Below are positions 5,596 through 26,872 of a stretch of DNA of 64,000 nucleotides, in pieces. The notes below the pieces were generated by a model, which worked only from the letters and a program-made list of their open reading frames with translations, did not search any database and had not been told where the DNA came from. Numbering within the stretch: the stretch's first letter is position 1; the number at the start of each line of letters is the position of its first letter. This DNA comes from Leptothrix discophora (lineage in GTDB: Bacteria; Pseudomonadota; Gammaproteobacteria; Burkholderiales; Burkholderiaceae_C), in contig NZ_JAUZEE010000001.1 of the NCBI RefSeq assembly GCF_030705305.1, positions 682,001-746,000 on the forward strand, read 5' to 3'. Made by a program: the position numbers and the translations under genes.

Positions 5596-5645
5596 CCCTA
5601 TGAAGCGCCGCGCATAGCACGCGCTCGGCAAGGCCCTTCATAGGG
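5596..5645. repeat. Long-spaced inverted repeat in the coxS/xdhC divergent promoter
   Basis: Arms CCCTATGAAG (5596-5605) and CTTCATAGGG (5636-5645) are perfect 10-base inverted copies with 30 bases between them. A related direct copy, CCTATGCAG, lies at 5557-5565, exactly 40 bases before CCTATGAAG. The left arm overlaps the operator candidate at 5598-5617. Apart from these elements, nothing else recognisable was found in the 5469-5773 gap. Confidence 0.55.
5598..5617. promoter_or_regulatory. Candidate ModE-like operator, cox operon (CTATG-N10-CATAG)
   Basis: CTATG at 5598-5602 and CATAG at 5613-5617 are separated by exactly 10 bases. The same geometry occurs upstream of the aor operon and between tupB and moeA. 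It lies 130 bases from the coxS start and 157 from xdhC. The overall length and dyad resemble ModE (Mo-box) operators. Binding is inferred, not shown. Confidence 0.6.
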
Positions 5646-5773
5646 GTAGAAGAGACGTCGGCGACAACATGACGCCGCAGTAAGGTGCAACCCGCGCCCT
5701 CCGTACCCTCTGCCGCGATTCTTCGGCAGCGCGCCCCGCGCCGCCTGACCCCCGACCTCAGCCCCGACACGCC

Positions 5774-6778
5774 ATGGACAACATCGACCTCCAGATCCTT
5801 CGCCAGGTGCAGAACTGGCGCGCCTCAGGACACCGCGTGGTGCTGGGCACGATCATCCGGACCTGGGGCTCGGCGCCGCGCCCGATCGGCTCGGTCGTGG
5901 CGGTGCGCGACGACGGCCAGATCGCCGGCTCGGTCTCCGGCGGCTGCATCGAGGACGACCTGATCGAGCGTGTCCGCGAGGGCGCGCTGCTGGCCGACAC
6001 CCCGCGCACCGTGCGCTACGGCGTCTCCGGCGACGAGGCCGCGCGCTTCGGCCTGCCCTGCGGCGGCACGATCGAGCTGGTGCTGGAGCCGGTGCTGCCG
6101 CACAGCGGCATCGAGGTCCTGCTCGAACGCCTGGCCAGCGGCCGCCGGGTGCGTCGCACGCTCGACTTCCTCACCGGCGCGGTCACGCTGACCGAGGCCG
6201 AGCCGGGCGACACGCTGACCTTCGACGGCCAGACGCTGGTCAGCACGCATGGCCCGGGCTGGCGCCTGATCGTCATCGGTGCCGGCCAGATGACGCAGTT
6301 CCTGGCCGAGATGGGCCGGGCGCTCGACTACCAGGTCTTCATCATCGACCCGCGCCCCGAGTACGCCGACGGCTTCGAGGTCGCCGGCTGCCAGCTCGTG
6401 CGCGAGATGCCCGACGACGCGCTGGTGGCGCTGTCGCTGGACGCGCACTGCGCCGTCATCGCCCTGACCCACGACCCCAAGCTCGACGACCTGGCGCTGA
6501 TGGAGGCGCTGCGCTCGCCGGCCTTCTACGTCGGCGCGATCGGCTCGCGCCTGAACCAGGCCAAGCGCAAGCAGCGCCTCGGCGAGCACTTCGGCCTGAC
6601 CGAGGCCGAACTCGGCCGCCTGCACGGCCCGGTCGGCATCAAGAACGGTGCCCGCACGCCGCCGGAAATCGCGGTGGCCATCCTGGCCGAGGTGACCGGC
6701 GTGCGCTACGGCTACCGCATCCCCGAACCCGTCTCGGTCGGCGGTGCGGCGGGTGTCGAGGCCGGTTGCATGGCCTGA
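5774..6778 (+). CDS. XdhC/CoxI family molybdenum-enzyme maturation protein
   Basis: 334 residues of the XdhC/CoxI/CoxF family. The N-terminal XdhC domain contains the conserved GSAPRPIGS and SVSGGCIED segments and a Cys in GLPCGGTIEL. The C-terminal half is Rossmann-like (VIGAGQMTQFLAEMG, then YVGAIGSRLN). Members bind sulfurated Mo cofactor and help insert it into xanthine dehydrogenase-family enzymes. It is divergent from coxSLM and shares its control region, so its likely client is that enzyme. Whether it is CoxI or CoxF in the Oligotropha sense cannot be settled by eye, so no symbol is given. Confidence 0.9.
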   Translation: MDNIDLQILRQVQNWRASGHRVVLGTIIRTWGSAPRPIGSVVAVRDDGQIAGSVSGGCIEDDLIERVREGALLADTPRTVRYGVSGDEAARFGLPCGGTIELVLEPVLPHSGIEVLLERLASGRRVRRTLDFLTGAVTLTEAEPGDTLTFDGQTLVSTHGPGWRLIVIGAGQMTQFLAEMGRALDYQVFIIDPRPEYADGFEVAGCQLVREMPDDALVALSLDAHCAVIALTHDPKLDDLALMEALRSPAFYVGAIGSRLNQAKRKQRLGEHFGLTEAELGRLHGPVGIKNGARTPPEIAVAILAEVTGVRYGYRIPEPVSVGGAAGVEAGCMA

Positions 6779-6823
6779 TGGCCAGCACCGGCGGCCGGTC
6801 GACCCGGCGCCGGGCCGCACCGC

Positions 6824-6840
6824 TGTCCCGCGTTGGAACA
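6824..6840. promoter_or_regulatory. Candidate activator dyad upstream of pqqU (TGTCCC-N5-GGAACA)
   Basis: TGTCCC at 6824-6829 and GGAACA at 6835-6840 form a near-dyad. A matching TGTCAC-N5-GGAACA is found at 47837-47853, between the AcoR-like activator and pedF. A weaker copy, TGCTCC-N5-GAACGA, follows within 25 bases. No convincing sigma-54 -24/-12 element was found between here and the pqqU start at 7023. Confidence 0.4.
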
Positions 6841-7022
6841 CGTCGACTGCTCCAGCGTGAACGATCGGTTCCAGAGGCCGCGCTGTCCGCCGCGGCTGCG
6901 GTCGACCTGTCGCCCGCGTGACGGTGTCCGAGCGGGTTAATGCGAACTGGCCGCAGCCGGCTGGCCTCGCGAACATTCGACTCGCTCGCTCAAGGTCATC
7001 CGCACCTTCGATCCCACACGCC

Positions 7023-9179
7023 ATGACACATCCGATGCCCACGCACCCGCTCTCCCGTCCCCGCCTGTCGCCGCTGACCCTGGCCGTTCACGCCACGCTG
7101 GCGCTGTCCGCGGCCGCGACGCTGCCGGTTGCCCAGGCCCAGGAGGCCGAACGCCTGGAAAGCGTCGTCATCACCGGCTCGACCCGCGAACAGAAGCTGG
7201 TCGACGCGCCCTACGCGATCAGCGCCGTCGGCAGCGAGGCGCTGCGCGCAGCCGGCCCGATGGTCAACCTGTCCGAGGCCCTGCAATCGGTGCCCGGCCT
7301 GGTGGTCGCCAACCGCAACAACTACGCCCAGGACCTGCAGATCAGCTCGCGCGGCTTCGGCGCCCGCGCCGGCTTCGGCGTGCGCGGCATGCGCCTGTAC
7401 GCCGACGGCATCCCGGCGACGATGCCGGACGGCCAAGGTCAGGTGGCGCATTTCGACCTGGCGGGCGCGGATCGGGTGGAGGTGCTTCGGGGGCCGTTCT
7501 CGGCGCTGTATGGCAACAGCTCGGGCGGCGTCATCGCGGCGTGGTCCAAGCCCGTGCGTGATCGCAGCTTCGAGGTCGGCGTCGACGCCGGCAGCTCCGG
7601 CCTGCGCCAACAGCGCGTGGCGTTCCAGTCACCGTTCGACGGCGGCTTCTCGATCGCGGCCAACTTCTCCAGCTTCGAGATCGACGGCTTCCGCCCGCAG
7701 AGCGACGCCGACCGACGCCTCGCCAACATCCGCCTGGGCTGGGTGGGCGAGGACGACCGCGTCACGCTCGCCATCAGCGACCAGCATCAGCGTGCCAACG
7801 ACCCACTCGGCCTGACGCGCACCCTCTTTAACCAGAATCCAGACCAGACTGCGGTCCAGGCCACGAACTTCAAGACCCGCAAGACCATCGACCAGACGCA
7901 GGCCGGCCTGAGCTGGCTGCACCAGATCGGCGGCGACAGCGCCTTGCAGTCGACCCAGGTCAGCACCTACATGGGGGAGCGGTCGGTCTTCCAGATGTTG
8001 TCGACGACGGTGGGTGCGCAGGCGCCAGCCTCAAGCGGCGGCGGCGTCATCGACTTCGATCGTCGCTACGCCGGCATTGACGGACGCCTCAACTGGAAGC
8101 TAGGCGACGGCGATTTGGTGACGGGCTTCAACCTTGAACAGCAACGTGACGACCGCAAGGGCTACGAGAACTTCACCAGCAATCCGACCGTCACCGGCGT
8201 TGTCGGCACGTTGCGGCGCGACGAAACCAACAAGGCCATGTCGCGCGAGGCGTATGCCCAGTACGAGTTGCCGCTTGCTCCCCATTGGCAGGTGATCGCC
8301 GGCGTGCGAACCGGCAAGGTCCGCCTGTCCAATGACGATCACTACGTCGTCCTCAACCCGGACGACAGCGGCTCGCTGGACTTCAGCTACACCAACCCCG
8401 TTTTCGGTCTGCGCTGGCAGCCCGACCAGACCTTGACACTGCACGCCAGCGTATCGCGCGGATACGAGTCGCCGACGCTCGGCGAAGTGGCCTACAGCGT
8501 GGACGCGCAGGGCAGCCCGACGACTGGCTTCAACAAGGCGCTTTCGGCACAGAGCAGCCGGCAACTGGAACTGGGTGCCAAGTGGCGTCCGACGCAGGAC
8601 TACGCGATCGACGCGGCAGTCTTCAGCATCGCCACCAGCAACGAGATCGGCGTGAACACGAACTCGGGTGGCCGCAGCACGTTCAAGAATGTTGGCGACA
8701 CCTTGCGGCAGGGCTTCGAGCTGTCGCAGCGCTGGCGTCACAGCCCCAACCTTCGCGGCCAGCTGGCCTTGACCGTGCTTAACGCGAGCTACCGCACCGG
8801 TGCTATCGATGGCAACAAGATCGCCGGCACGCAGCCATCCAGCCTGTTCGCGGAGATCGCCTGGAAGACCTGGCCGGGTGGCGAATGGGGCTTCGAGGTC
8901 CGCGGTCAGGGTCGAACCGCACTGAACGACAGCAACCAGGACTCGCCCGGCACGGCTGGCGGCGGCTTCGCGGCCGGCTGGGGCATCGCCAACTTGCGTT
9001 ACCTGCATACCTGGGACATCGGCAATGACGCCAAGCTGGAACTTCTGACGCGCGGCGACAACCTGGCTGACCGGCGCTACGCCGGCAGCGTGATCGTGTC
9101 GGAAGCCCAGCAGCGTTATTTCGAGCCGGCCCCCGGCCGCAGCGGCCTCGTCTCCCTGCGCTACCTCCGCAAGTTCTGA
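7023..9179 (+). CDS. pqqU: TonB-dependent outer-membrane receptor, PqqU/YncD type (PQQ uptake)
   Basis: 718 residues: signal peptide ending near PVAQAQ, plug domain, 22-strand barrel. From memory it shares unusually long identities with E. coli YncD (PqqU), the receptor for pyrroloquinoline quinone. Examples are NLSEALQSVPGL, NYAQDLQ, RGFGAR, YADGIPATMPDGQGQ and RGPFSALYGNSSGGVI in the plug, KGYENF in the barrel, and GSVIVSE with YFEPAPGR near the end. The ATG at 7023 gives a normal signal peptide; 7038 is an alternative. It is followed within 8 bases by two quinoprotein-relay genes, which supports a role in acquiring PQQ for periplasmic dehydrogenases. Confidence 0.88.
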   Translation: MTHPMPTHPLSRPRLSPLTLAVHATLALSAAATLPVAQAQEAERLESVVITGSTREQKLVDAPYAISAVGSEALRAAGPMVNLSEALQSVPGLVVANRNNYAQDLQISSRGFGARAGFGVRGMRLYADGIPATMPDGQGQVAHFDLAGADRVEVLRGPFSALYGNSSGGVIAAWSKPVRDRSFEVGVDAGSSGLRQQRVAFQSPFDGGFSIAANFSSFEIDGFRPQSDADRRLANIRLGWVGEDDRVTLAISDQHQRANDPLGLTRTLFNQNPDQTAVQATNFKTRKTIDQTQAGLSWLHQIGGDSALQSTQVSTYMGERSVFQMLSTTVGAQAPASSGGGVIDFDRRYAGIDGRLNWKLGDGDLVTGFNLEQQRDDRKGYENFTSNPTVTGVVGTLRRDETNKAMSREAYAQYELPLAPHWQVIAGVRTGKVRLSNDDHYVVLNPDDSGSLDFSYTNPVFGLRWQPDQTLTLHASVSRGYESPTLGEVAYSVDAQGSPTTGFNKALSAQSSRQLELGAKWRPTQDYAIDAAVFSIATSNEIGVNTNSGGRSTFKNVGDTLRQGFELSQRWRHSPNLRGQLALTVLNASYRTGAIDGNKIAGTQPSSLFAEIAWKTWPGGEWGFEVRGQGRTALNDSNQDSPGTAGGGFAAGWGIANLRYLHTWDIGNDAKLELLTRGDNLADRRYAGSVIVSEAQQRYFEPAPGRSGLVSLRYLRKF

Positions 9180-9186
9180 CCCGCCC

Positions 9187-10029
9187 ATGCGACCACCGCC
9201 CTCTTTCACCCGTCGCCATCTGATCCGGCTGGCCACCGCTGGTGCCGCCCTGGCCCAGGCCTTGGCCCTGGTCGGCCCGGTGCATGCGGCCGACGCGTTC
9301 GAGGGCGATCCCTTCCAGTCCCATCCCTGGCCCGACATGCGCCGCGAGTACCTCGGCGCCGGGCCGGTGGTCTGGGACGAACGGGTGCAGGTCAGCGGGC
9401 CGGCCTTCGCGGAGGACCCGATGAACGTGCCGGTGTCGGTCGCCGTCGACGGCCTGGACGGTATCGAGCGCATCGTCATCCTGGTCGACCGCAACCCCAT
9501 CCGCAAGGTGCTGGAGTACCAGCCGCTGGCGGCCCTGCCGCGCGTGTCCTTCCGCTTCAAGCTCGAGCAGGCCAGCCCCGTGCGGGCAGCGGTGCGCACG
9601 CGCGACGGGCGCTGGCATGTCGGCGGCGCCTGGGTCGATTCGTCCGGCGGTGGCTGCACCGTCTCCGGCGCGACGCGCAAGGACGGCAGCTGGTCGCGCA
9701 CGCTCGGCAGCGTCAGCGCCCGCATGTTCGAGCGCAGCGAGGCGCCCGGCAGCGCGGCCGACAGCGTCGCGCTGGATGCCGGCTCGCGCATCCGTGTGCG
9801 TGTCATGCACCCGATGGACACCGGCCTGGTGGCTGGCGTGCCGGCCTTCTACCTGAGCCGCCTGACGCTGCGCGACGGCCAGGACCGCGAGCTGCTGCGT
9901 CTTCAGCCCTTCGAGCCGGTCAGCGAGAACCCGGTCTTCTCCTTCGACTTCCCGACCCGCCCGACCGGCCCGCTGCGGCTGGTCGGCGTGGACAACAACG
10001 GCAACCGCATCGACAGCCGGATCGAATGA
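9187..10029 (+). CDS. Quinoprotein-dehydrogenase-associated SoxYZ-like carrier protein
   Basis: 280 residues with an N-terminal signal (RRHLIRLATAGAALAQALAL, ending near HAADAF). The protein looks like a fusion of SoxY- and SoxZ-like halves. A SoxY-type flexible carrier tip with Cys is visible as SSGGGCTVSG near residues 155-164, and the C-terminal half (MHPMDTGLVAG, FDFPTRPTGPL) is SoxZ-like. Such fused SoxYZ relatives co-occur with PQQ dehydrogenases rather than with thiosulfate oxidation. The role is unknown; a carrier or electron relay is a guess from SoxYZ. The stop overlaps the next gene's start, indicating translational coupling. Confidence 0.85.
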   Translation: MRPPPSFTRRHLIRLATAGAALAQALALVGPVHAADAFEGDPFQSHPWPDMRREYLGAGPVVWDERVQVSGPAFAEDPMNVPVSVAVDGLDGIERIVILVDRNPIRKVLEYQPLAALPRVSFRFKLEQASPVRAAVRTRDGRWHVGGAWVDSSGGGCTVSGATRKDGSWSRTLGSVSARMFERSEAPGSAADSVALDAGSRIRVRVMHPMDTGLVAGVPAFYLSRLTLRDGQDRELLRLQPFEPVSENPVFSFDFPTRPTGPLRLVGVDNNGNRIDSRIE

Positions 10030-11081
10030 TGCGTGCCGCCCTTCGACTGGCCGCCGTCACGGCCACCCTGTTTGCGCTCGCCAGCGGCGGCGTCGTGGCA
10101 CAGCCGGCGCCGATGTCGGCACCGATGACCGAGCGGATCACCGCGCCGTCCGAGCCTCCCCGTGTCGACATGGCCCGGCTCGACCTCGGCCTGCGGGCCC
10201 GCGCGCTGGCCGACGGCGTGTACGTCATCGAGGGCGCCAACGCCGACTTCAGCCCGGCCAACGGCTGCAACATCATCAACACCGGTTTCATCGTCACGGA
10301 CGCGGGCGTGGTCGTGGTCAACACCGGCCCGAGCAGGCGCTACGGCGAGCAGCAGCGCGCGCTGATCGAGCGGACCACCGGCCAGCCCGTCGTGCAGGTC
10401 GTTCACCTCAACCTGCATCCGGACTACTTCCTCGGCAACCAGGCCTATGCCGACCTGCCGCGCCGCGCGACCGAGGCCACCCGGGCCGGCATGGCGCGCG
10501 AGGCGGCGGCCTACGAGACCAACCTCTACCGCCTGTGCGGCGACTGGATGAAGGGCACGCAGGCCCTGCTGCCGGACGCCGGACCGGCCACGAGCCTCGA
10601 CGCCGCCGCGTCGGCCGGCGTGCTGCGCATCGGCGGGCGCGAGCTGCTGCTGCAGGAGCTGCGCGGCCATACCGATTCGGACCTGGTCCTGATCGACCGC
10701 CGCAGCGGCGTCGCCTTCATCGGCGGCCTGGCCTTCGCCGACCGCATCCCGACGACGCCGCATGCCCGCATCGACGACTGGCTGGCCAGCCTCACCACGC
10801 TGGCCGCCACGCTGAAGGCGGCCGACGCCCGCGTGATCGTCCCCAGCCACGGCCCGGTCCGCGCCGACACCTCCGCCCTCTTCCAGACCCGCGACTACCT
10901 GCGCTGGCTCGACCATCGCCTGCGCACATCCGCCCGCAACGGCCTCGAACTCGCCGAGGTCCTGAAGCTCCCCGTCCCCGCCCCGTACAAGGACTGGGCC
11001 GCCGTCCAGACCGAATACCTGCGCAACGTGGTGCACCTGTTTCCAGGGCATGAGCAGGCGGTGCTGGGGGCGGCACGCTGA
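10026..11081 (+). CDS. Metallo-beta-lactamase-fold protein, quinoprotein relay type
   Basis: 351 residues, secreted (signal about 1-24, ending VVAQPAP). The MBL fold is clear: GANADFSPANGCNIIN, then the first metal region, then GHTDSDLV and VPSHGPV. The HxHxDH motif is degraded to NLHPDYFLGN, keeping one His and the Asp, while later GHT and SHG histidines remain. It belongs to the SoxH-related proteins described as quinoprotein relay zinc metallohydrolases. It overlaps the SoxYZ-like gene by 4 bases, so the two probably act together in the periplasm. Its reaction is not known, and the altered metal site argues against a standard two-zinc hydrolase. Confidence 0.85.
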   Translation: MMRAALRLAAVTATLFALASGGVVAQPAPMSAPMTERITAPSEPPRVDMARLDLGLRARALADGVYVIEGANADFSPANGCNIINTGFIVTDAGVVVVNTGPSRRYGEQQRALIERTTGQPVVQVVHLNLHPDYFLGNQAYADLPRRATEATRAGMAREAAAYETNLYRLCGDWMKGTQALLPDAGPATSLDAAASAGVLRIGGRELLLQELRGHTDSDLVLIDRRSGVAFIGGLAFADRIPTTPHARIDDWLASLTTLAATLKAADARVIVPSHGPVRADTSALFQTRDYLRWLDHRLRTSARNGLELAEVLKLPVPAPYKDWAAVQTEYLRNVVHLFPGHEQAVLGAAR

Positions 11082-11342
11082 ACCTGCGCACCGGCCTGTC
11101 CCGGATGCCACGAAGCCGTCAGAGCAGGTCACCGGCGTGGTCGGGCAGGTTGCGCAGCTTGCGCAAGGCATCCCGCAAGATGACCTGGGTCTGCGGCAGG
11201 TTCACGCTCAGCCCCAGCGTCTGGATCGCGGTCGGGCGATGACCCGACTTGCTGGTGAGGGTCCGACAACCGGTCACATGCAGGCCCACCAACTCGGCTT
11301 GCATGACGGCCTTGTAGCCTGCACCGAAGCGGTTTTCCGCGC
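11082..11342. other. Gap without an assignable gene
   Basis: On the minus strand, the reading frame to the stop at 11119 encodes about 70 residues (ending RKLRNLPDHAGDLL). No start with a ribosome-binding site and no family were recognised, so it may be a gene remnant. Base composition is mixed and lower in GC than the neighbours. Nothing else was seen. Confidence 0.4.
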
Positions 11343-11870: not shown

Positions 11871-12108
11871 ATTCCGACGTTCCGTCAATATCCCAGACAG
11901 GGCAACGACCAGGACCTGTTGGCCATCGTCTTCGAAACCAAACCGAATAAAACAAAACCAAACCGATGCAGAGCGGGACCAACAGGTTGACCGAAGCAGC
12001 TCAGAAGGCAAAACATTTCTCGCTTGGGCATTCTCATGCCGACCACGACGGACTAGGATAACCAGGCCAATGGCATTCACCCCACTTTTCCATTCACCGT
12101 CACACTGC

Positions 12109-12466: not shown

Positions 12467-13615
12467 TCACCCCGCCGGCAACAACCCCAGCGGCGCCACC
12501 GATGCCTTCGGCTGGCGGAAATGCCACCACGGCAGGGCGCGGGTCAGGGACAGGACCTCGCCGGAGCGGGCGATCGACAGCGGCTGGTAGCCGGGCACGT
12601 CCTGCAGCGTCTGCTGCCAGTCGGCGCTGCCGAGCACGGCGCGCAGCTTGAGGACCGCCGGGTGGTCGAGGGCGTCCTTCAGGCAGACGAGGAAGTAGTC
12701 CTCCTCGGCCAGGGGCACGAAGGCCAGCCCGAAGGCTTGCGCGGCCGCCTCGATGCCCATGCCGACGTCGCCCAGGCCGCTGGCGATGGCGGCGGCGACG
12801 GCCAGGTGGCTGTCCTCTGCGGCCTGCTCGCTGCGGCTCAGGGCATCGGCCGGCAAGCCGGCCTCGTGCAGCAGGTGATCGGTCAGCAGGCGGGTGCCGG
12901 AACCCGTCTGGCGCTGCACGAAACGCGCGCCGCTGCGCACCACGTCGGCCAGCGTGCGCACGGCCAGCGGGTTGCCCGGCGCGACCATCAGGCCCTGGGC
13001 ACGGCGGCTGAAGCCGATCAGCTTGTGCTGGCCCGGCTTGAGCAGCGGCTTGAGCGCCTGCGCGAACAGCTTGGGCGAGTCCGGCAGCGGCGGGACATGG
13101 AAGCCGGCGATCAGGCAGCGGCCCTCGGCCAGCGCCCGCAGCGCGTCGACGCTGCCGGCAAAGCGCAGCTCGACGTGCAGGCGCTGCTGGCGCGAGGCCA
13201 GCTCGCGCAGCGCCGGCAGCGCCAGGTCATGGCTGGCGTAGACGGTCAGCACGTGCTGGTCGCCGTCGCGGGCTTCGGCCAGTGCGCGTTCGAGCTCGAC
13301 CCGCAGCGCCTCGATGTGCGGCGTCAGGCGGGTGCGGGCCCGCGTCTCGGCCCAGACCAGGCGTTCGGCGAAGGGCGTCAGGCGCGCCGGCTGGCCCTGG
13401 GTCCAGCTGACCAGCGGCTCGCCGAGCACGTCCTGCCATTGCTTGAGCGATCCCCAGACATGCCGGTAGGACAGGCCCAGTGCCTTGGCCGCATGCTGGA
13501 TCGAGCCGTTCTCGCGCACGGCCCAGAGCAGGTCGAACAGCGGGTTGCGAACCTGCGCGCCTTGCTGCGCACTCGGGTCGAAGCTGTACTGGAGGTGGAC
13601 GCCGAGGGTCTTCAT
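12467..13615 (-). CDS. ModE-like HTH regulator fused to a periplasmic-binding-protein-like sensor domain
   Basis: 382 residues without signal peptide or membrane segments. Residues about 20-85 are a ModE/LysR-type winged helix (NPLFDLLWAVRENGSIQHAA, then LGLSYRHVWGSLKQW). The rest is a binding-protein fold (YASHDLALPAL, GFHVPPLP, RQTGSGTRLLTDHLL, GLGDVGMGIEAAA), as in COG1910-type molybdate-binding domains. This combination suggests a cytoplasmic oxyanion sensor controlling Mo/W genes. ATG 13615 is preferred over GTG 13618 because AAGGA sits 5 bases ahead of it. It follows a small unknown gene by 9 bases; a degenerate copy of the shared operator lies upstream of that pair, suggesting autoregulation. 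Ligand identity (molybdate or tungstate) is inference. Confidence 0.85.
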   Translation of the reverse strand: MKTLGVHLQYSFDPSAQQGAQVRNPLFDLLWAVRENGSIQHAAKALGLSYRHVWGSLKQWQDVLGEPLVSWTQGQPARLTPFAERLVWAETRARTRLTPHIEALRVELERALAEARDGDQHVLTVYASHDLALPALRELASRQQRLHVELRFAGSVDALRALAEGRCLIAGFHVPPLPDSPKLFAQALKPLLKPGQHKLIGFSRRAQGLMVAPGNPLAVRTLADVVRSGARFVQRQTGSGTRLLTDHLLHEAGLPADALSRSEQAAEDSHLAVAAAIASGLGDVGMGIEAAAQAFGLAFVPLAEEDYFLVCLKDALDHPAVLKLRAVLGSADWQQTLQDVPGYQPLSIARSGEVLSLTRALPWWHFRQPKASVAPLGLLPAG

Positions 13616-13624
13616 CACGATCCT

Positions 13625-13954
13625 TCAGCCGCCGCCACGGCGGGTGTAGAGATCGAAGTAGCGCATGAAGCGGGCACGCTCATCGGCACTGCAGCCCTCG
13701 AAGGCGAAGGTCACCGCCAGGCGCGGCATGCGCAGCAGCGCGATCTGGCGCGGCGGGAGGGTCTCCCAGTCCAGCCGCAGGACGGCAGCGGGCATGTCAG
13801 GGTCCAGCGCGACCTCGGCGCCGTGCTCTCCGACACGGCGCCAGGTCCGCCCGCCGATGGCACCGGGCAGCCAGGCCAGCCATTCGGCGACGGAACAGCC
13901 CTGCTCGCGCCGGAAGGCGGCAGGGATCTCGGCTAGGTGGGCGGTGGCGGTCAT
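13625..13954 (-). CDS. Small conserved-looking protein of unknown function
   Basis: 109 residues, no membrane segment or signal peptide. It is rich in Arg and hydrophobic residues, with a distinctive end FMRYFDLYTRRGGG and single Cys residues at about 20 and 89. No family is recognised with confidence. It is read as real because it is codon-typical for the region, lies 9 bases upstream of the ModE-like regulator on the same strand, and faces the operator-bearing gap 13955-14027. Position suggests a part in Mo/W handling or regulation; nothing in the sequence shows a mechanism. Confidence 0.65.
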   Translation of the reverse strand: MTATAHLAEIPAAFRREQGCSVAEWLAWLPGAIGGRTWRRVGEHGAEVALDPDMPAAVLRLDWETLPPRQIALLRMPRLAVTFAFEGCSADERARFMRYFDLYTRRGGG

Positions 13955-13984: not shown

Positions 13985-14004
13985 CTATGCTTGCGCCGTC
14001 ATCG
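13985..14004. promoter_or_regulatory. Degenerate ModE-like operator (CTATG-N10-CATCG)
   Basis: CTATG (13985-13989), 10 bases, then CATCG (14000-14004): one base off the CTATG-N10-CATAG element at the cox, aor and tup/moeA promoters. It lies 31-50 bases upstream of the small gene that precedes the regulator, so autoregulation is possible. The mismatch makes this the weakest of the four copies. Confidence 0.4.
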
Positions 14005-15314: not shown

Positions 15315-15316
15315 TG

Positions 15317-20465: not shown

Positions 20466-21803
20466 TCAGCCACGGACATGGGCCCGCGCCGACTGGCCCT
20501 GGGCGCAGGCCAGGTAGGCGGCCATCAGCTGCGTCGGGTCCTCCAGCAGCTTGTCCTTCCATTCGCCGAGCCTGACCTGACCCTCGACCAGCCCACGCAT
20601 CACGCCGACATGCTGGATCCAGCCGATCGCATTGCAGCCGACCAGCCGATCGCCGCTGAATTGCAGGCTCAGGTGCCGGCCGTTGGCCGCATCGGTCAGC
20701 TCGACATGCTCGCCGCCGGGCACGCCGTCCCACTTGCCGAAGCTCGCCGAGATCATGCCCAGCGTGTCCAGCACGTTGATCTGCGTGACGCCCTTGAGGT
20801 CGGCGCTCGGCTCGCCGACCTGGCCGGCCATGTTCAGCGCGGCCACCCGGGCCTGCTCGGCCGCGTTGGGCTGGATCGCGCTGACGATGGTCGTGCCACT
20901 GACCTTGTCGAAGGCCTCGGCGCAGTCGCCCGCCGCGTAGACGCCGGGCACGTTGGTCTGCATGTGCTCGTCGGTCAGCACGCCGACCAGGCAGGTGATG
21001 CCCGAATGCTCCAGGAAGCCGATGTTGGGCCGCACGCCGGTGGCGCTGATGACCAGATCGGCATCGATCTTCTCGCCGGTCGACAGCCGCACGCGCATCG
21101 GCGCCGACGAGGCGGGCGAGCCCAGGCCGATGGCCTGCGCAACCTTGCCCAGCAGGCCGGGCTCGGCATCGCGCTCGATCGCCTCAGCGCGGGCGCCGGT
21201 GTGGACCTTGACGCCCTTGCCCTCGACCCACTGCTTGATCATCGTGCCGGCGGTCGGGCCCATCATGCGGGGCACCATGCGGTCACCCATCTCGACCACC
21301 GTCAGCTGCACGCCGCGCATGGCCAGCGCTTCCATGATGATGCAGCCGATGAAGCCCGCGCCGAGCTGCAGAACGCGCGCGCCCGGCTGGGCCAGCTTCA
21401 TGATCTCGCGGGCGTTCTCCAGCGTCCAGCAAGGGTGGACGCCGGGGCCCTGGATGCCCGGGATCGGCGGCGTCGCCGGCGACGAACCGGTGGCGATCAG
21501 CAGCCGGTCATAGGCGACCCGGCTGCCGTCCTGCAGCTCGACCGCCCGGGTCTGCACGTCGACCTTGGCGGCGCGACCGCGCAGCAGCGTGATGCCCTGG
21601 CGAGCGTAGTGGTCCTCGCCATGGCGCAGCTGGGTCCCGTCCTCGCCGACCTTGCCGATCAGCAGGTAGGGAATCGCCATGCGCGAGTACGGCGCCTCAG
21701 GCTCGTCGCCGATGACCACGACCTCGTCGTTCGGCGCGTGCTTGCGCAGGGTCTCGGCGGCGATCACGCCGGCCGGACCCGCTCCCAGGATCACGTGTTT
21801 CAT
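20466..21803 (-). CDS. aorC: FAD/NAD-binding subunit of aldehyde oxidoreductase
   Basis: 445 residues, pyridine nucleotide-disulfide oxidoreductase fold. FAD motif ILGAGPAGVIAAETLRKH at residues 4-21; second dinucleotide motif VLQLGAGFIGCIIMEAL near 145; FAD-phosphate segment GVYAAGDCAEAFD near 290. In Aromatoleum aromaticum, AorC is the FAD subunit that lets AorABC reduce NAD+. Gene order aorA-aorB-aorC here matches that enzyme. Residues 30-60 (EAPYSRMAIPYLLIGKV) are typical of NADH:acceptor reductases. It lies 18 bases after aorB. Confidence 0.9.
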   Translation of the reverse strand: MKHVILGAGPAGVIAAETLRKHAPNDEVVVIGDEPEAPYSRMAIPYLLIGKVGEDGTQLRHGEDHYARQGITLLRGRAAKVDVQTRAVELQDGSRVAYDRLLIATGSSPATPPIPGIQGPGVHPCWTLENAREIMKLAQPGARVLQLGAGFIGCIIMEALAMRGVQLTVVEMGDRMVPRMMGPTAGTMIKQWVEGKGVKVHTGARAEAIERDAEPGLLGKVAQAIGLGSPASSAPMRVRLSTGEKIDADLVISATGVRPNIGFLEHSGITCLVGVLTDEHMQTNVPGVYAAGDCAEAFDKVSGTTIVSAIQPNAAEQARVAALNMAGQVGEPSADLKGVTQINVLDTLGMISASFGKWDGVPGGEHVELTDAANGRHLSLQFSGDRLVGCNAIGWIQHVGVMRGLVEGQVRLGEWKDKLLEDPTQLMAAYLACAQGQSARAHVRG

Positions 21804-21821
21804 GCAGTCACCGTGACCCGT

Positions 21822-23669
21822 TCAGAGACCGAGGCGCGAGCGCGTCTCGGGCTTGAGCTGGCCGTCGCTGTCCCAGCCGCGGATCTCGTAGTACTTGGGC
21901 AGCATCTCGGGCAGCTTGTTGACCAGGCCCTTGGCCGGACCGGTCTTGGCCGGCTCGTTGAGCAGGCGCGGGGGCAGCGTGTCGTCCTTGCTGGTGAAGC
22001 CGGCGCGGTTGTTGAAGTCGCGCTCCATGTTCCAGATGCGTTCGCCGATCTGGTTCAGGTTCTCCAGCGTGAACTCGTCGCCGCAGGCGGCCGCGACCTG
22101 CGGCTGCACGTCGGCCAGCGTCCAGGCGAAGCTGGTGAAGATGCAGATGCCGGCGGCGTCGAAGGCGGCCGTCGCGTCCTGGAAGGCCATGACCAGCTCG
22201 GGCTTGCCGTCGGCCGTCAGCGGATCGGTCTTGACCGGGATGCCCAGCACCTCCGAGGCCACGGTGTAGCTGCGCAGGTGGCAGGCGCCGCGGTTGGAGG
22301 TCGCGTAGGTCAGGCCCATGCCCTGGATGCCGCGCGAGTCGTAGGCCGGGAATTCCTGGCTCTTGACCGTCATCGACAGCTCGGGGTGGCCGTACTTGGC
22401 GCACAGGCGACGCGAGCCCTGGCCGATCTCCTTGCCGAAACCTTCGCCGCGGGCGGTGATGTCGACGAAGTGGGCCAGCGCCTGGGCCGAGCCGAACTTG
22501 GCGTCAATGCCCAGCTGCTCGGCCGTCAGCACGCCCATCTCGTAGAGCTCCATGACCGCGCCGATGGTCGCGCCGAACGAGATCGGGTCCATGCCCTGCT
22601 CGTTGCAGATCACGTTGGCGTACTGCAGCGCCTCGAGGTCGTTGACACCGTTGGCCGCACCCAGCGCCCAGGCCGCCTCGTACTCCAGACCGCCCGAGGC
22701 GCCCCAGTACTGCGGCTTGTTCTCGACCGTGAAGTGGCCCTGGTCGATCTTGGAGATCCGGCCGCAGGCGATGGTGCAGCCGAAGCAGGCCTGGTTGGTC
22801 ACCAGCTGCTTCTTGCCGTCGGTCGCGCGCGGGGTGGCCATCGCCTCGGCGGAGATGTCCTTGGCGCCCTCGAACTGGATGTCCTTGTGGTTGCGCGTGG
22901 GCAGCGCACCCATCTCGTTGATCACGTTCATCAGCACCTGGGTGCCGTAGGTCGGCAGGCCCTGGCCGGTGACGGCGTTGTCGTGAAGGATCTTCTTCTT
23001 CTCGAAGGTGACCTTCATGAACTCCTTGGGGTTGGCGATGTTGCCCACGCCCTTGGTGCCACGCACGGCGACCGCCTTGAGGTTCTTGCTGCCCATGACG
23101 GCACCGACGCCCGAGCGGCCGGCCGCCCGGTGCAGGTCGTTCACGACGGCCGCGAACAGGACCTGGTTCTCGCCCGCCAGGCCGATGCTGGAGACGCGCA
23201 GCAGCGGGTCCTGGTGCTGGGTCTTGAGGGTCTCCTCGGTGACCCAGACGCTCTTGCCCCACAGGCCCGAGGCGTCGCGCAGCTCGGCGACGTCATCGGC
23301 GATGTAGAGGTAGACCGGCTTCTCGGAGCGGCCCTCGAAGATGACCATGTCCCAGCCGGCCATCTTCAGCTCGGCACCCCAGTAGCCGCCCGAGTTCGAG
23401 CAGGCGATCGCGCCGGTCAGCGGCCCCTTGGTGACGACGGTGTAGCGGCCACCGGTGGAGGCCATCGTGCCGGTCAGCGGTCCGGTCGACCAGATGATCT
23501 TGTTGTCCGGCGACAGCGGATCGACCTTGGGATCGATCTCCTCGACCAGGTACTTGGACGCCAGTCCGCGCGAACCGAGGTACTGCCTTGCCCAGTCCAT
23601 CTTCAGCGGCTCGGACGTCACCGTGCCGGCGCTCAGGTTGACGCGAAGGATTTTTCCAGCCCATGCCAT
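21822..23669 (-). CDS. aorB: Tungsten-containing aldehyde:ferredoxin oxidoreductase catalytic subunit
   Basis: 615 residues, full length for the AOR family. N-terminal GKILRVNLSAGTVTSEPL, then GPLTGTMASTGGRY and GPLTGAIACSNSGG of domain 1. The [4Fe-4S] ligands are C295, C298 and C302 (ACFGCTIAC) plus a late Cys in AAGICIFTSF. The pterin-binding AAGRSGVGAVMGSKNLKA lies near 182-199. The enzyme oxidises aldehydes to acids, or reduces acids in reverse, using W-bis-pyranopterin. The adjacent tungstate transporter, moeA and moaD favour tungsten over molybdenum. Located in the cytoplasm with AorA and AorC as electron-transfer partners. Confidence 0.95.
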   Translation of the reverse strand: MAWAGKILRVNLSAGTVTSEPLKMDWARQYLGSRGLASKYLVEEIDPKVDPLSPDNKIIWSTGPLTGTMASTGGRYTVVTKGPLTGAIACSNSGGYWGAELKMAGWDMVIFEGRSEKPVYLYIADDVAELRDASGLWGKSVWVTEETLKTQHQDPLLRVSSIGLAGENQVLFAAVVNDLHRAAGRSGVGAVMGSKNLKAVAVRGTKGVGNIANPKEFMKVTFEKKKILHDNAVTGQGLPTYGTQVLMNVINEMGALPTRNHKDIQFEGAKDISAEAMATPRATDGKKQLVTNQACFGCTIACGRISKIDQGHFTVENKPQYWGASGGLEYEAAWALGAANGVNDLEALQYANVICNEQGMDPISFGATIGAVMELYEMGVLTAEQLGIDAKFGSAQALAHFVDITARGEGFGKEIGQGSRRLCAKYGHPELSMTVKSQEFPAYDSRGIQGMGLTYATSNRGACHLRSYTVASEVLGIPVKTDPLTADGKPELVMAFQDATAAFDAAGICIFTSFAWTLADVQPQVAAACGDEFTLENLNQIGERIWNMERDFNNRAGFTSKDDTLPPRLLNEPAKTGPAKGLVNKLPEMLPKYYEIRGWDSDGQLKPETRSRLGL

Positions 23670-23681
23670 GTCGTTTGCTCC

Positions 23682-24155
23682 TTACGCGGCGGTTTGGTTG
23701 CCGAGCTTGTCCGCCCAGGCCTGCATCTTGTTGAGACCGGTCCAGTTGGCGTCGATGTAGGTGATCGCGCCGGTCGGGCAGGCTTCGGCACAGGCCGGTT
23801 CGCCGCCGCACAGGTCGCACTTCTGGACCTTGCCGGTTTCCTGGACGTAGTTGATCGTGCCGAAGGGGCAGGAGATCGTGCAGACCTTGCAGCCCACGCA
23901 GGTCGAGTCGTTGACGACCTTGGCGCCGGTGACCTTGTCGACCGTGATCGCCTCGACCGGACAGGCATGCAGGCACCAGGCCTCGTCGCACTGGGTGCAG
24001 GTGTAGGGCACCTTGCGGCCGGTCTCGTGGAAGTCGAACACCTTGATGCGCGACTTGGCCGTCGCGAACACGCCGTAGTTCTCGTACGAGCAGGCCATTT
24101 CGCACTGCAGGCAACCCGTGCACTTGTCCGGGTTGATGTGGAGGCTCTTCTGCAT
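23682..24155 (-). CDS. aorA: Four-cluster ferredoxin-like electron transfer subunit of AOR
   Basis: 157 residues from ATG 24155, chosen for the upstream GGAGAA and because the preceding frame is not conserved. Four [4Fe-4S] motifs: C12/C15/C18/C22 (CTGCLQCEMAC), then CTQC with WCLHACP, then CVGCKVCTISCP, then CDLC with CAEACP. It resembles HycB/CooF-type polyferredoxins and is the AorA subunit of AorABC, where copies form a wire between AorB units and AorC. First gene of the operon, 12 bases ahead of aorB. A CTATG-N10-CATAG operator lies 69 bases upstream. Confidence 0.93.
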   Translation of the reverse strand: MQKSLHINPDKCTGCLQCEMACSYENYGVFATAKSRIKVFDFHETGRKVPYTCTQCDEAWCLHACPVEAITVDKVTGAKVVNDSTCVGCKVCTISCPFGTINYVQETGKVQKCDLCGGEPACAEACPTGAITYIDANWTGLNKMQAWADKLGNQTAA

Positions 24156-24223
24156 GACGGGGTTCTCCGCAGTCGTTCCGTGGGTGGATGGGCGCATCCC
24201 GAAGCACGAGGCTTTCGGAAGCT

Positions 24224-24243
24224 CTATGCAATGATCTGCATAG
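24224..24243. promoter_or_regulatory. Candidate ModE-like operator, aor operon (CTATG-N10-CATAG)
   Basis: CTATGCA (24224-24230) and TGCATAG (24237-24243) form a perfect 7-base dyad with 6 bases between, the best of the four copies. The element is immediately upstream of aorA. On the minus strand it contains CCTATGCAG, also present at 5557-5565 upstream of coxS. Confidence 0.65.
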
Positions 24244-24258
24244 GGACCGGCGACGGAT

Positions 24259-24279
24259 ACCTAGGCGTTACCCCTAGGT
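24259..24279. promoter_or_regulatory. Second dyad upstream of aorA
   Basis: ACCTAGG (24259-24265) and CCTAGGT (24273-24279) are perfect inverted arms around 7 bases. It lies 15 bases beyond the ModE-like element, in the aor-tupA gap. It could be a second regulator site or part of the tupA terminator; no U-run follows. Confidence 0.4.
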
Positions 24280-24351
24280 TTCATCCGGTTATCCGGGGCA
24301 ACCCGATGCCGTGCTCCAGGCTGACACGGCAGGGGCGCCGGGCGATGCGCC

Positions 24352-25221
24352 TCAGCGTGCCGCGTTCGGGAAGAACAGCTGCTCGCCGCCGATCTTGTAG
24401 GCCGCGATGGCGCCCTGCCCGGCCGGCGAGACCACCCAGTCGACGAACTGCTGACCGAGCGCCTGCTTGACGTGCGGGTGCCTGGCCGGGTTCACCAGCA
24501 TCACGCCGTATTGGTTAAAGAGTCGGGTGTCGCCCTCGACCAGCACGGCCAGGTCGGCGCGGTTCTTGAACGACAGCCAGGTACCGCGATCGGCGAGCAC
24601 GTAGGCGCCGGTGCTGGCGGCCATGTTCAGCGCGGGGCCCATGCCGCAGCCGCATTCGCGGTAGCCGGCGGGCTTGGCCGCGCCGCCGCCGATGTCGCTG
24701 CCGGCCTGCTTCCAGTAGCGCAGCTCGGCGGCGTGGGTACCGCTCTTGTCGCCGCGCGAGACGAAGGTTGCGCCCGACGCCGTCGCCAGCTTCTGCAGCG
24801 CCGCGACGATGTCGCGGCCCTTGACCTTGGCCGGATCGGCCGCCGGGCCGACCAGCACGAAGTCGTTGTACATGACCGGCAGGCGCTTGACGCCCCAGCC
24901 TTCGGCGACGAACTTCTCCTCGGCGACCTGGTCATGCACGAAGACCACGTCGGCATCGCCACGACGACCCATGTCCAGCGCCTGGCCCGTGCCCAGCGCG
25001 ACCACGCGGACCTCGGTGCCGGTGGCGGCCTTGTACTGCGGCAGCAGGTGGCCGAACAGGCCGGACTGCTCGGTCGAGGTGGTCGAGGCCACGACGATGA
25101 ACTTTTCCTGCGCCACGGCCGGCAGCGCCAGCGACAGCAGGCCGATCGCGCCGAGTGCGGCGACCAGCAGCTGACGACGGGCCGGAACGGTCGATCGGTT
25201 GCGCGTGTTCAGGTGGTCCAT
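24352..25221 (-). CDS. tupA: Tungstate ABC transporter substrate-binding protein
   Basis: 289 residues with an N-terminal signal (QLLVAALGAIGLLSLALPAVAQ). The TupA ligand motifs are present: VASTTSTEQSGLF just after the signal and SRGDKSGTH near residue 155. This distinguishes TupA from molybdate-binding ModA. The third loop reads YRECGCGMGPAL, where TupA proteins usually have E-T-G-Q-G-M-G, so two Cys replace Thr and Gln. It captures tungstate in the periplasm for TupBC. Last gene of tupB-tupC-tupA, overlapping tupC by 13 bases and lying upstream of the aor operon. Confidence 0.9.
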   Translation of the reverse strand: MDHLNTRNRSTVPARRQLLVAALGAIGLLSLALPAVAQEKFIVVASTTSTEQSGLFGHLLPQYKAATGTEVRVVALGTGQALDMGRRGDADVVFVHDQVAEEKFVAEGWGVKRLPVMYNDFVLVGPAADPAKVKGRDIVAALQKLATASGATFVSRGDKSGTHAAELRYWKQAGSDIGGGAAKPAGYRECGCGMGPALNMAASTGAYVLADRGTWLSFKNRADLAVLVEGDTRLFNQYGVMLVNPARHPHVKQALGQQFVDWVVSPAGQGAIAAYKIGGEQLFFPNAAR

Positions 25222-26036
25222 GGGAGTTCGCCTTTCAGGAATTGCGCCGCAGCGGGCGGCAAGGTGTCGTGGAAGAAGCGGTCCACCGGCAGGTCGACGA
25301 CCAGTCGGCCGGCTTCCAGGTGGATCACCCGGTTGGCCAGGCGCTTGGCCTGGCCGAGGTTGTGCGTGCTCATCACCAGCGTGACGCCGTCACGGGCGAA
25401 GTCGTCGATCAGCGTCTCGACCTCGCGCTTGGCGCTCGGGTCGAGGCTGGCGGTCGGCTCGTCGAGGAAGAGGATGTCGGGCCGCAGCGCCCAGGCCCGC
25501 GCCAGCGCCAGGCGCTGCTGCTGGCCGCCCGACAAGGCCCGCGCCGAACGCTCGGCCAGCGACTGCAGGCCGACCCGCTCCAGCGCCGCATCGGCCCGCT
25601 GACGCCGCTCGGCTCGTGGCACACCGGCCAGCCACAGCGCCAGCGTCAGGTTGCGGCGCGCCGTCAGGTGCAGCAGGAAGGGCCGCTGGAACAGCATCGC
25701 CATCACCGGCACCCGGCCCTGCCCCGCCGGCCCCTGCGCATGCAGCGTGCGCTCGCCGGGCCCGTCGATCAGGCCATGCAGGCAGCGCAGCAGCGTGGTC
25801 TTGCCCGAGCCGTTGGCGCCGACCAGCGCGAGCCGGTCGCCGCGCCGCAGCGTCAGGTCGACCTCGGCCAGCGCCTGGACCGTGCCGAACACCGCGCCCG
25901 CGCCGCGCAAGGTGATCAGCGCCGGCCGGGACGCGTCGAGCGCCAGCGGGGTGGCATCGAGCGCCAGCGGGGCCGCATCGAGCGCCAGCGGGCCAGCATC
26001 GATCGACCGGGGCACACCGCCGAGGACCGCGCTCAT
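25209..26036 (-). CDS. tupC: Tungstate ABC transporter ATP-binding protein
   Basis: 275 residues. Walker A GANGSGKTT near residues 75-83, Q-loop MLFQRPFLLH, signature LSGGQQQRLALARA, Walker B DILFLDEPTASLD, switch His in STHNLGQAK. The start at 26036 overlaps the tupB stop by 4 bases. The first 45 residues are an unusual extension built on three copies of a seven-residue LALDA(A/T)P-like unit, coded by a 21-base tandem repeat. The canonical ABC domain starts at about residue 42 (ITLRGAGAVFG). No TOBE domain. Confidence 0.92.
   Translation of the reverse strand: MSAVLGGVPRSIDAGPLALDAAPLALDATPLALDASRPALITLRGAGAVFGTVQALAEVDLTLRRGDRLALVGANGSGKTTLLRCLHGLIDGPGERTLHAQGPAGQGRVPVMAMLFQRPFLLHLTARRNLTLALWLAGVPRAERRQRADAALERVGLQSLAERSARALSGGQQQRLALARAWALRPDILFLDEPTASLDPSAKREVETLIDDFARDGVTLVMSTHNLGQAKRLANRVIHLEAGRLVVDLPVDRFFHDTLPPAAAQFLKGELPWTT
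25936..25998. repeat. Three tandem 21-base units inside tupC
   Basis: Units at 25936-25956, 25957-25977 and 25978-25998, each starting TCGAGCGCCAGCGG on the plus strand. They stay in frame and encode the N-terminal LALDA repeats of TupC. Confidence 0.9.
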
Positions 26037-26752
26037 CCGACCGCTCCCTCGCCCGCCGCGCGCAGGCCCTGTGGCTGCAGCCAGTCGACCAGCGCGTTGA
26101 TCAGCCCGACGACGCCCAGCAGCAGCAGGCCCAGCGCCAGCGCCAGCGGCAGGTCGCCCTTGCTGGTCTCCAGTGCGATCGCGGTGGTCATCACGCGGGT
26201 CACGCCGTCGATGTTGCCGCCGACGATCATCACCGCGCCGACCTCGGCCACCGCGCGGCCGAAGGCGGTCAGCAGCACCGTCAGCACCGACAGGCGCTCG
26301 TGCAGCAGCACCAGCAAGGCGCCCATCAACGGGCCGGCACCCATCGAGCGCAGCTGGTCGCCGCCCTCGGCCATGCCGTCGATGACCAGCCGGCGCGTCA
26401 GCGCCGCGATCAGCGGCACGACCAGGATGCTCTGCGCCACCACCATCGCCGTGGGCGTGAACAGGATGCCCAGCGTGCCGAGCGGGCCGCTGCGCGACAG
26501 CAGCAGGTAGACGATCAGGCCGACCACGACCGAGGGCAGCGCCAGCAGCGTGTTGAGCAGCCAGACCGCGAGGCCATGGCCGGGAAACCGCGTCACCGCC
26601 AGCCAGGCGCCCAGCAACAGCCCGAAGGCTGCGCCGATCGCGCAGGCGGTGCCGCTGACCTGCAGCGACAGCGTCACGATCTGGCGCACCGCCGGGTTGC
26701 CACTGGCGATCAGGTCGAAGGCGGTGGACAGGCTCAGCGCCAGCGTCGTCAT
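26033..26752 (-). CDS. tupB: Tungstate ABC transporter permease
   Basis: 239 residues from ATG 26752 (MTTLALSLSTAFDLI). Earlier in-frame starts would translate through the divergent promoter and operator, so they are rejected. About five hydrophobic helices, with the EAA-like ABC contact loop at GRAVAEVGAVMIVGGNIDG. This is the TupB/WtpB-type permease of the CysTW family. It is first in the tupBCA operon. A CTATG-N10-CATAG-like element lies about 101 bases upstream, shared with divergent moeA. Confidence 0.9.
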   Translation of the reverse strand: MTTLALSLSTAFDLIASGNPAVRQIVTLSLQVSGTACAIGAAFGLLLGAWLAVTRFPGHGLAVWLLNTLLALPSVVVGLIVYLLLSRSGPLGTLGILFTPTAMVVAQSILVVPLIAALTRRLVIDGMAEGGDQLRSMGAGPLMGALLVLLHERLSVLTVLLTAFGRAVAEVGAVMIVGGNIDGVTRVMTTAIALETSKGDLPLALALGLLLLGVVGLINALVDWLQPQGLRAAGEGAVG

Positions 26753-26852
26753 CGCGGCGCTCCCGACGCGCAGGGCTGTGGGCGCGGGCCCGACAGATAG
26801 GAAAGACCGTTCATGTGGCGTGGGATTCTGCGGATCTTGTCCTGGCGTGGCG

Positions 26853-26872
26853 ATATGTGTCGACGTGCATAG
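26853..26872. promoter_or_regulatory. Candidate ModE-like operator between tupB and moeA (ATATG-N10-CATAG)
   Basis: TATG at 26854-26857 and CATA at 26868-26871 keep the 10-base spacing; the left flank is A instead of C. It is central in the 227-base divergent gap, 101 bases from tupB and 108 from moeA, suiting joint control. Nothing else was recognised in this gap. Confidence 0.55.

What the first reader, a model, noticed from the sequence alone, without database searches (positions are those of the whole stretch)
5598..26872. One operator (CTATG-N10-CATAG) at four molybdenum/tungsten loci
Seen directly: TATG-N10-CATA at 5599-5616 (coxS/xdhC), 24225-24242 (aorA) and 26854-26871 (tupB/moeA), plus TATG-N10-CATC at 13986-14003 upstream of the ModE-like regulator pair. 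The spacing is 10 bases every time. With about 70% GC (assumed), a rough count gives under 0.1 chance occurrences of the exact form in 64 kb, and all three exact copies found fall in the right promoter gaps. ModE operators are TATA-type palindromes of similar size. Inference: a single oxyanion-responsive regulon, probably run by the protein at 12467-13615, joins a form-II CODH-like enzyme to a tungsten enzyme and its transporter.
Basis: partly seen in the sequence, partly recalled or inferred. Interest (0 to 1): 0.85.

Follow-up and report, generated by a model that had tools for sequence, protein, structure and literature searches.

The report
Tungsten-gene switch with ModE-like operator
Three copies of one short mirrored DNA sequence mark a small gene set for tungsten uptake, a tungsten enzyme and a molybdenum-type enzyme, and comparison with related bacteria shows they are very probably the docking sites of one nearby regulator that senses a metal oxyanion.

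Summary
The palindrome is real. TATG-N10-CATA occurs three times in the window and nowhere else in its 4.65 Mb genome: at coxS/xdhC, aorA and tupB/moeA. The fourth copy (13986, one mismatch) scores like background and is not conserved. The motif accompanies orthologues of the protein at 12467-13618, a ModE/LysR-type helix-turn-helix joined to a PF12727 sensor. In 80 relatives' loci the 10-base spacer gives 55 matches, others 0-6; all 36 tupB promoters examined (window included) carry it. Without the regulator it is mostly missing, with or without a ModE: pooled tup and aor promoters 32 of 48 with, 6 of 42 without. Of 15 homologues at 33-42% identity, 9 have it upstream. The spacing equals the ModE box, TATATA-N6-TATATA, with two bases per half changed. 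Inferred: tungstate is the signal, and operator position gives opposite signs, aor against tup and cox. The sensor is of the TaoR kind; the DNA-binding domain is not. New variant of a known kind; binding and ligand untested.

The parts
5598..5617 (.). operator 1, CTATG-N10-CATAG, between divergent coxS (-) and xdhC (+)
   Evidence: 7 of 11 coxS promoters (window included) have a site of score 14 or more
24224..24243 (.). operator 2, CTATG-N10-CATAG, 69 bp upstream of the aorA ATG at 24155 (-)
26853..26872 (.). operator 3, ATATG-N10-CATAG, between divergent tupB (-) and moeA (+)
   Evidence: 36 of 36 tupB promoters examined in the regulator-bearing loci, window included
12467..13618 (-). regulator (called Reg here): ModE/LysR-type HTH + linker helix + PF12727 PBP-like sensor; most likely binder of the operators
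4998..5468 (-). coxS-like [2Fe-2S] subunit
2592..4943 (-). coxL-like molybdopterin subunit, active-site loop AYRGAGR (form II type; motif meaning recalled)
1776..2564 (-). coxM-like FAD subunit
728..1762 (-). AAA+ ATPase of the cox string (MoxR-type is a recalled label)
5774..6778 (+). XdhC-family maturation factor
23682..24155 (-). aorA, ferredoxin-like subunit of the AOR (ORF open from 24197; ATG at 24155 preferred from homologues)
21822..23669 (-). aorB, AFOR catalytic subunit (W-pterin type)
20466..21803 (-). aorC, FAD/NAD(P) oxidoreductase subunit
26033..26752 (-). tupB-like permease
   Evidence: NF041773, 143 bits, cut-off 320
25209..26036 (-). tupC-like ATPase (ABC ATPase by family; tupC by position)
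24352..25221 (-). tupA-like binding protein
   Evidence: NF041772, 222 bits, cut-off 400
26980..28272 (+). moeA

Best explanation
The three palindromes are binding sites of the protein at 12467-13618 (Reg), a one-component regulator made of a ModE/LysR-type winged helix and a periplasmic-binding-protein-like sensor domain. Shown by comparison: motif, spacing, shared promoters and dependence on Reg. Inferred: Reg binds as a dimer to CTATG(C/A)A-N6-T(G/T)CATAG and reads intracellular tungstate. Inferred, weaker: operator position sets the sign. At tup and cox the site lies upstream of the probable -10 element (activator-like place); at aor it lies just downstream of it (repressor-like place). 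In one ligand state, presumably tungsten-poor, Reg would raise tungstate uptake and the cox-type enzyme and hold back the tungsten enzyme AOR; tungstate would reverse this.
For: Only three exact copies in 4.65 Mb, all at these promoters. Spacer specificity in 80 named Reg loci: n=10 gives 55, every other n from 4 to 18 gives 0-6. 36 of 36 tupB, 11 of 14 aorA, 7 of 11 coxS promoters examined in those loci (window included) score 14 or more; shuffled promoters reach 14 in 0.2%. In whole genomes, tupB not adjacent to Reg: 11 of 18 with Reg against 3 of 32 without (one-sided p 1.8e-4); aorA: 21 of 30 against 3 of 10. ModE (match at E 1e-15) has no effect: tupB sites 8 of 28 with ModE, 6 of 22 without. 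Genome-wide, 43 Reg-bearing genomes hold 257 matches against 173 control; 51 Reg-less hold 234 against 248 (102 of 200 genomes). 15 homologues at 33-42% identity: 9 have the site upstream, 0.11 expected. Sensor PF12727 186 bits. Geometry: offsets with 4 or more -10-like hexamers lie only downstream of the site in tup and cox, only upstream in aor.
Against: 16 of 48 promoters in Reg-bearing genomes lack a site, and 6 of 42 in Reg-less genomes have one; of these G040 and G163 are incomplete assemblies (74 and 70%), but G037 (99% complete) and G161 (90%) are unexplained. The aorA contrast is weak on its own (one-sided p 0.03; two-sided 0.06). Related genomes are not independent and some genomes enter both the tup and the aor set, so p values are too small. 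Reg has no convincing site of its own here. Several sites in relatives have no identified target (L041, L042, L043). No binding, ligand or expression data. The -10 assignments are by sequence only; the window's aor promoter belongs to the smaller class (-10-like element 15 nt away), and its tup promoter has AGAATC at 24 nt rather than TANNNT.
Confidence: 0.72

Rival explanations
1. The sites are ModE boxes read by the classical ModE (HTH plus two TOBE stretches) at C22, and Reg is a bystander.
For: Half-site spacing equals the ModE consensus ATCGNTATATA-N6-TATATANCGAT; the genome has such a ModE.
Against: Presence of the site does not depend on ModE (tupB 8 of 28 with, 6 of 22 without; aorA 12 of 21 with, 12 of 19 without), but follows Reg; ModE-bearing, Reg-less genomes have 1 of 17 tupB sites. 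ModE-bearing here means a ModE_repress match at E 1e-15 or better (139 of 200 genomes), of which only 27 pass the curated cut-off. No TAT-N12-ATA in the 13.5 kb around modABC-modE; that also means ModE's own box was not found there.
Confidence: 0.07
2. Reg is a molybdate (or general Mo/W oxyanion) sensor, and tungstate is not the physiological signal.
For: PF12727 relatives include the C-terminal part of a molybdopterin biosynthesis protein model (NF011068, 150 bits); moeA and a Mo-type hydroxylase are in the set; formate dehydrogenase genes are probable targets in relatives.
Against: The commonest neighbour among the genes searched is tup (40 of 80 loci), a separate ModE accompanies modABC, and aor is a W-type enzyme by family.
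Confidence: 0.2
3. The motif is a coincidence of inverted repeats in promoters or a common sigma/IHF-type element.
For: Own-genome count 3 against 2 for the control pattern.
Against: Spacer specificity, conservation at orthologous promoters and dependence on Reg.
Confidence: 0.02
4. Reg acts with one sign everywhere, for example as a repressor at all three operons, and the apparent promoter geometry is misleading.
For: No mapped start sites; -10 hexamers in high-GC genomes are hard to call; the tup spacings 23 and 38 differ by about 1.5 helical turns, which does not fit one activator geometry.
Against: Clear, opposite peaks of -10-like hexamers at fixed distances.
Confidence: 0.35

Closest known systems
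TaoR family (Rajeev et al. 2019, paper not read; title seen in reference lists, content partly recalled; named in passages of PMC11980592 and, as tupR/DVU3193, of PMC10102598)
   Same: PBP-like sensor; control of tungstate transporter and tungsten aldehyde oxidoreductase. Recalled: activates aor and represses tup when tungsten is plentiful.
   Different: TaoR-like proteins bear an HTH_17 DNA-binding domain (excisionase-type is recalled); Reg has HTH_1 of the ModE/LysR kind and a ModE-shaped operator. The Reg sites also cover a cox-type enzyme and moeA.
ModE of Escherichia coli type
   Same: HTH kind; operator geometry TAT-N12-ATA, consensus ATCGNTATATA-N6-TATATANCGAT (PMC545781 passages).
   Different: No TOBE domain; bases 4 and 5 of each half-site are G and C/A in place of A and T; a ModE with TOBE coexists in the genome.
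LysR-type regulators
   Same: Domain order and predicted fold; the 50 listed Foldseek matches are full-length LysR-type regulators by title or by recall, such as BenM (3k1m), at 12-20% identity.
   Different: Sensor scores far higher with PF12727 than with the LysR effector domain; single 18-bp palindrome rather than the T-N11-A box (recalled).
Three-subunit NAD-linked AOR of Aromatoleum aromaticum (class III WOR, PMC13328260 passages)
   Same: Catalytic, small iron-sulfur and FAD/NAD subunits.
   Different: Here under the TATG-N10-CATA operator; no regulator was mentioned in the passages read.

Membership tests
ModE | NCBIfam ModE_repress domain at or above its cut-off (98.5 bits) | tested here: not met
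   Reg 41.5 bits, 44 in genome search
ModE | C-terminal TOBE molybdate-binding domains | tested here: not met
   None in Reg at E 0.001; two stretches in the other ModE
ModE | Operator TATATA-N6-TATATA | tested here: inconclusive
   Same spacing and outer TAT/ATA, inner AT changed to G(C/A)
TaoR | PBP-like (PF12727) sensor | tested here: met
   186 bits against cut-off 27; that TaoR's PBP-like domain is PF12727 is recalled
TaoR | Excisionase-type HTH_17 | tested here: not met
   HTH_1 at 39.9 bits; no HTH_17 among families listed at E 0.001; TaoR-like feature from PMC11980592
TaoR | Controls tup and aor | tested here: inconclusive
   Conserved sites at both promoters, no expression data
LysR family | LysR-type HTH (PF00126) over cut-off | tested here: met
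   39.9 bits, cut-off 26.6
LysR family | LysR effector domain (PF03466) | tested here: inconclusive
   28.2 bits, cut-off 28, far below PF12727
LysR family | T-N11-A operator box (recalled) | tested here: not met
   Inner fixed T and A are 12 apart
Tungstate transporter TupABC | NCBIfam TupA and TupB equivalog cut-offs | tested here: not met
   222 of 400 bits (only match listed) and 143 of 320 bits (second to a general permease subfamily)
Aerobic CO dehydrogenase, form II | AYRGAGR loop in CoxL (recalled) | tested here: met
   Residues 368-374; no NCBIfam cut-off is passed: glyceraldehyde dehydrogenase alpha 653 of 790 bits is best, CO dehydrogenase 637 of 991 next
Aerobic CO dehydrogenase, form II | CO oxidation | not testable with these tools
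   Substrate unknown

The most novel reading that the evidence does not exclude
Reg is a tungstate switch between two enzymes for one job: the tungsten enzyme AOR when tungstate is available, and a form-II CODH-like molybdenum hydroxylase (probably an aldehyde dehydrogenase) when it is not, using one operator read with opposite signs. This would give a group of form-II CoxL enzymes a physiological role. A related case is a distant homologue (L252) whose operators sit before an NAD formate dehydrogenase of the metal-free kind (metal-free is recalled).
Probability: 0.3. Interest if true: 0.8.

Novelty: new variant of a known kind. Interest (0 to 1): 0.62.

Why it matters
It defines a widespread regulator group (98 of 200 family genomes have a match, orthologues and more distant homologues together) with a readable operator, apparently separate from ModE, so tungsten regulons in aerobic Burkholderiales become searchable. 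It ties a form-II CODH-like enzyme of unsettled substrate to tungsten supply, and offers a direct test of metal-dependent isoenzyme swapping between tungsten and molybdenum. I saw no description of a ModE/LysR-HTH plus PF12727 regulator with a TATG-N10-CATA operator in the listings (titles and abstract starts of the listed papers, plus passages of seven papers); that library lacks most subscription papers, and the TaoR paper did not appear in it.

Tried and rejected
Fourth operator at 13986: rejected as background. Three other one-mismatch hits of the genome (C27:362561, C22:278633, C22:251379) were fetched as stretches of 1.4-1.6 kb; no gene of the query set is in them. Two of the seven exact matches in G133 (970748, 3757517) sit away from any gene of the query set in stretches of about 1.5 kb. 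Classical ModE as the binder: judged unlikely from co-occurrence. A second conserved element at aor, CCTAGGTW, looked like a regulon of another activator, but its exact form is found only at aor in this genome; left open as a possible -10 or other site. Sequence search of solved structures gave no match at E 0.01. Targets of the sites in L041, L042 and L043 were not identified. One search used 102 of the 200 genomes (43 Reg, 51 without, 8 with only a distant homologue, the last dropped from the test); the other 98 were not counted. One search used 18 Reg-bearing genomes with tupB not beside Reg, 32 without Reg and 3 with only a distant homologue (0 of 3 had a site, dropped from the test); Reg-bearing genomes with tupB beside Reg were not fetched for it. 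One search used 40 of 57 aorA genomes; G032, which has only a distant homologue, was put with the Reg-less. Of the 37 homologues screened for the structure alignment, L044 and L094 were dropped because the matched stretch held a stop near its end. The cox-tup linkage (21 of 56) is a hand count.
Full report
What was checked. The exact palindrome TATG-N10-CATA is at 5599, 24225 and 26854, with 0.03 expected per window. A search of the whole genome (4,646,228 bases, 31 contigs) finds the same three and no others; the backwards control pattern has two, so the number is ordinary and the location is what counts. Distances to the start codons in the window are 130 bp (coxS), 157 (xdhC), 69 (aorA, ATG 24155), 101 (tupB) and 108 (moeA). 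The fourth copy at 13986 has one mismatch, is one of 33 places in the genome with at most one mismatch, scores at background level, and none of 13 relatives' promoters of the same gene reaches its score.

What the genes are. Pfam and NCBIfam place a cox-type molybdenum hydroxylase (728-5468, minus; CoxL loop AYRGAGR; best NCBIfam match glyceraldehyde dehydrogenase alpha, under its cut-off), xdhC (5774-6778), a three-subunit AOR (20466-24155, minus), a tup-like transporter (24352-26752, minus; under the TupA and TupB cut-offs) and moeA (26980-28272). The regulator, 12467-13618 minus, has an HTH_1 domain at its N terminus and PF12727 in the rest (186 bits). AlphaFold gives mean pLDDT 85 with a helix-turn-helix (helices between 26 and 65), a long linker helix (82-117) and an alpha/beta sensor; Foldseek lists full-length LysR-type proteins first, at 12-20% identity among the 50 shown. 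The same genome has a separate ModE with two TOBE stretches beside modABC.

Conservation. Eighty named relatives of the regulator, mostly labelled Burkholderiales or its genera, were fetched with flanks (82 found, 80 kept; the best, 92% identical, is Sphaerotilus mobilis). In these 1.30 Mb, TATG-Nn-CATA occurs 55 times for n = 10 and 0-6 times for every other n from 4 to 18. The sites recur at the same promoters: tupB 36 of 36 examined (33 exact), aorA 11 of 14, coxS 7 of 11, counting scores of 14 or more and the window itself. In Polaromonas and others the site lies between divergent tupB and the regulator. The motif built from 52 distinct sites reads (G/C)C-TATG-(C/A)A-N6-T(G/T)-CATA-G(G/C). 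Compared with the ModE consensus ATCGNTATATA-N6-TATATANCGAT, read in passages of PMC545781, the outer TAT and ATA stand at the same distance, and bases 4-5 of each half are changed.

Which protein. In the 200-genome family sample, 98 have a match to the regulator; I treat matches of 48% identity or more as orthologues. Promoters of tupB lying away from the regulator carry a site in 11 of 18 genomes with an orthologue and in 3 of 32 without; 3 genomes with only a distant homologue have none. For aorA it is 21 of 30 against 3 of 10. Pooled, 32 of 48 promoters against 6 of 42, some genomes entering twice. ModE, taken as a ModE_repress match at E 1e-15 or better (139 of 200 genomes, 27 over the curated cut-off), does not matter: tupB 8 of 28 with ModE and 6 of 22 without; aorA 12 of 21 and 12 of 19. 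Genome-wide counts show the same: 43 regulator-bearing genomes have 257 matches against 173 for the control, 51 without have 234 against 248 (102 of the 200 genomes). Against this stand the 16 regulator-bearing promoters without a site and the six regulator-less ones with a site; G037 and G161 are not explained by incomplete assembly. Fifteen homologues of 33-42% identity, 14 from other families of the class and one second copy in this family (L265), were read: n = 10 gives 14 matches, other spacers 0-3, and 9 of 15 (8 of the 14) have the site upstream of the regulator, where resampling expects 0.11 of 15. I take this as strong evidence that the operator belongs to this protein group.

Other probable targets in relatives. 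The operator also stands upstream of a formate-dehydrogenase-like string (L048, L052; best match Fdh-alpha, 441 of 666 bits for L048; L058 by its similar surroundings, not searched), TonB receptors (L075, L100), Porin_O_P genes (L253, L256, L258, L260), a formate dehydrogenase gamma subunit (L263, over its cut-off; L265 similar but below cut-off) and an NAD-dependent formate dehydrogenase (L252; NF005750, 700 bits, cut-off 329; that this enzyme is metal-free is recalled). In L065 coxS, coxL, coxM and the AAA gene follow tupA in the same direction, and in L084 coxS, coxM and the AAA gene do (no coxL match in that string); the gap between the tupA and coxS matches is under 200 bp. Those two coxS promoters have no site of their own, so they may share the tup operator; a common transcript is untested. 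coxS lies within 25 kb of tupB in 21 of the 56 genomes that have both (hand count). These links suggest the cox-type enzyme belongs to tungsten physiology.

How it probably works (inference). Counting offsets at which four or more promoters share a -10-like hexamer: in tup they lie 23, 37, 38 and 43 nt downstream of the site (6, 9, 8 and 5 promoters) and none upstream; in cox 38 nt downstream (4) and none upstream; in aor 3, 15 and 40 nt upstream (13, 4 and 10) and none downstream (46, 6 and 35 distinct promoters with a site; mean per offset 0.32, 0.04 and 0.32). Read plainly, bound regulator would help tup and cox and block aor. In the window, cox has TAGGAT at 38 nt, tup has AGAATC at 24 nt, and aor has CCTAGGTA with its hexamer 15 nt upstream, so the window fits, but its aor belongs to the smaller class. 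The tup spacings 23 and 38 differ by about one and a half helical turns, which does not suit a single activator geometry. I give the opposite-sign step about even odds.

Place among known systems. TaoR, known to me from recall and from passages of PMC11980592 and PMC10102598, controls the same kind of genes with the same kind of sensor but another DNA-binding domain. ModE shares the operator shape but not the sensor. Reg fails a defining feature of each, so it is filed in neither; it works like TaoR and binds like ModE. That is a new variant of a known kind.

Noticed in passing
13625-13954 (-): Small gene between the AOR string and the regulator; no Pfam match at E 1 and no NCBIfam match at E 0.001; all 13 orthologues found end in (R/K)GGG, 12 of 13 after an FMxxFDL stretch. 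Possible AOR accessory protein.
   Followed up: partly
24258-24273: CCTAGGTW element in the aor promoter; conserved about 15 nt upstream of the operator in several close relatives; exact form found only here in the genome.
   Followed up: partly
6918-11081 (+): TonB receptor (sub-cut-off PqqU match), SoxYZ fusion and metallo-beta-lactamase-fold gene lie with the regulator in relatives; SoxYZ in 12 of 80 loci.
   Followed up: no
L252:2577-2760: Two operators between a distant regulator homologue and an NAD formate dehydrogenase of the kind recalled as metal-free, which suggests cofactor-sparing control.
   Followed up: partly
L253, L256, L258, L260: Porin_O_P genes divergent from the regulator with operators between: candidate outer-membrane channels for tungstate or molybdate.
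   Followed up: no
L065:2998-9981 and L084:5284-9981: cox genes follow tup genes in the same direction, with an operator in front of tupB and none of score 9 or more in front of coxS.
   Followed up: partly
5624-5643: A weaker second palindrome (two mismatches) beside operator 1; relatives L040 and G133 have two exact sites in this gap, L026 one exact and one with a mismatch.
   Followed up: partly
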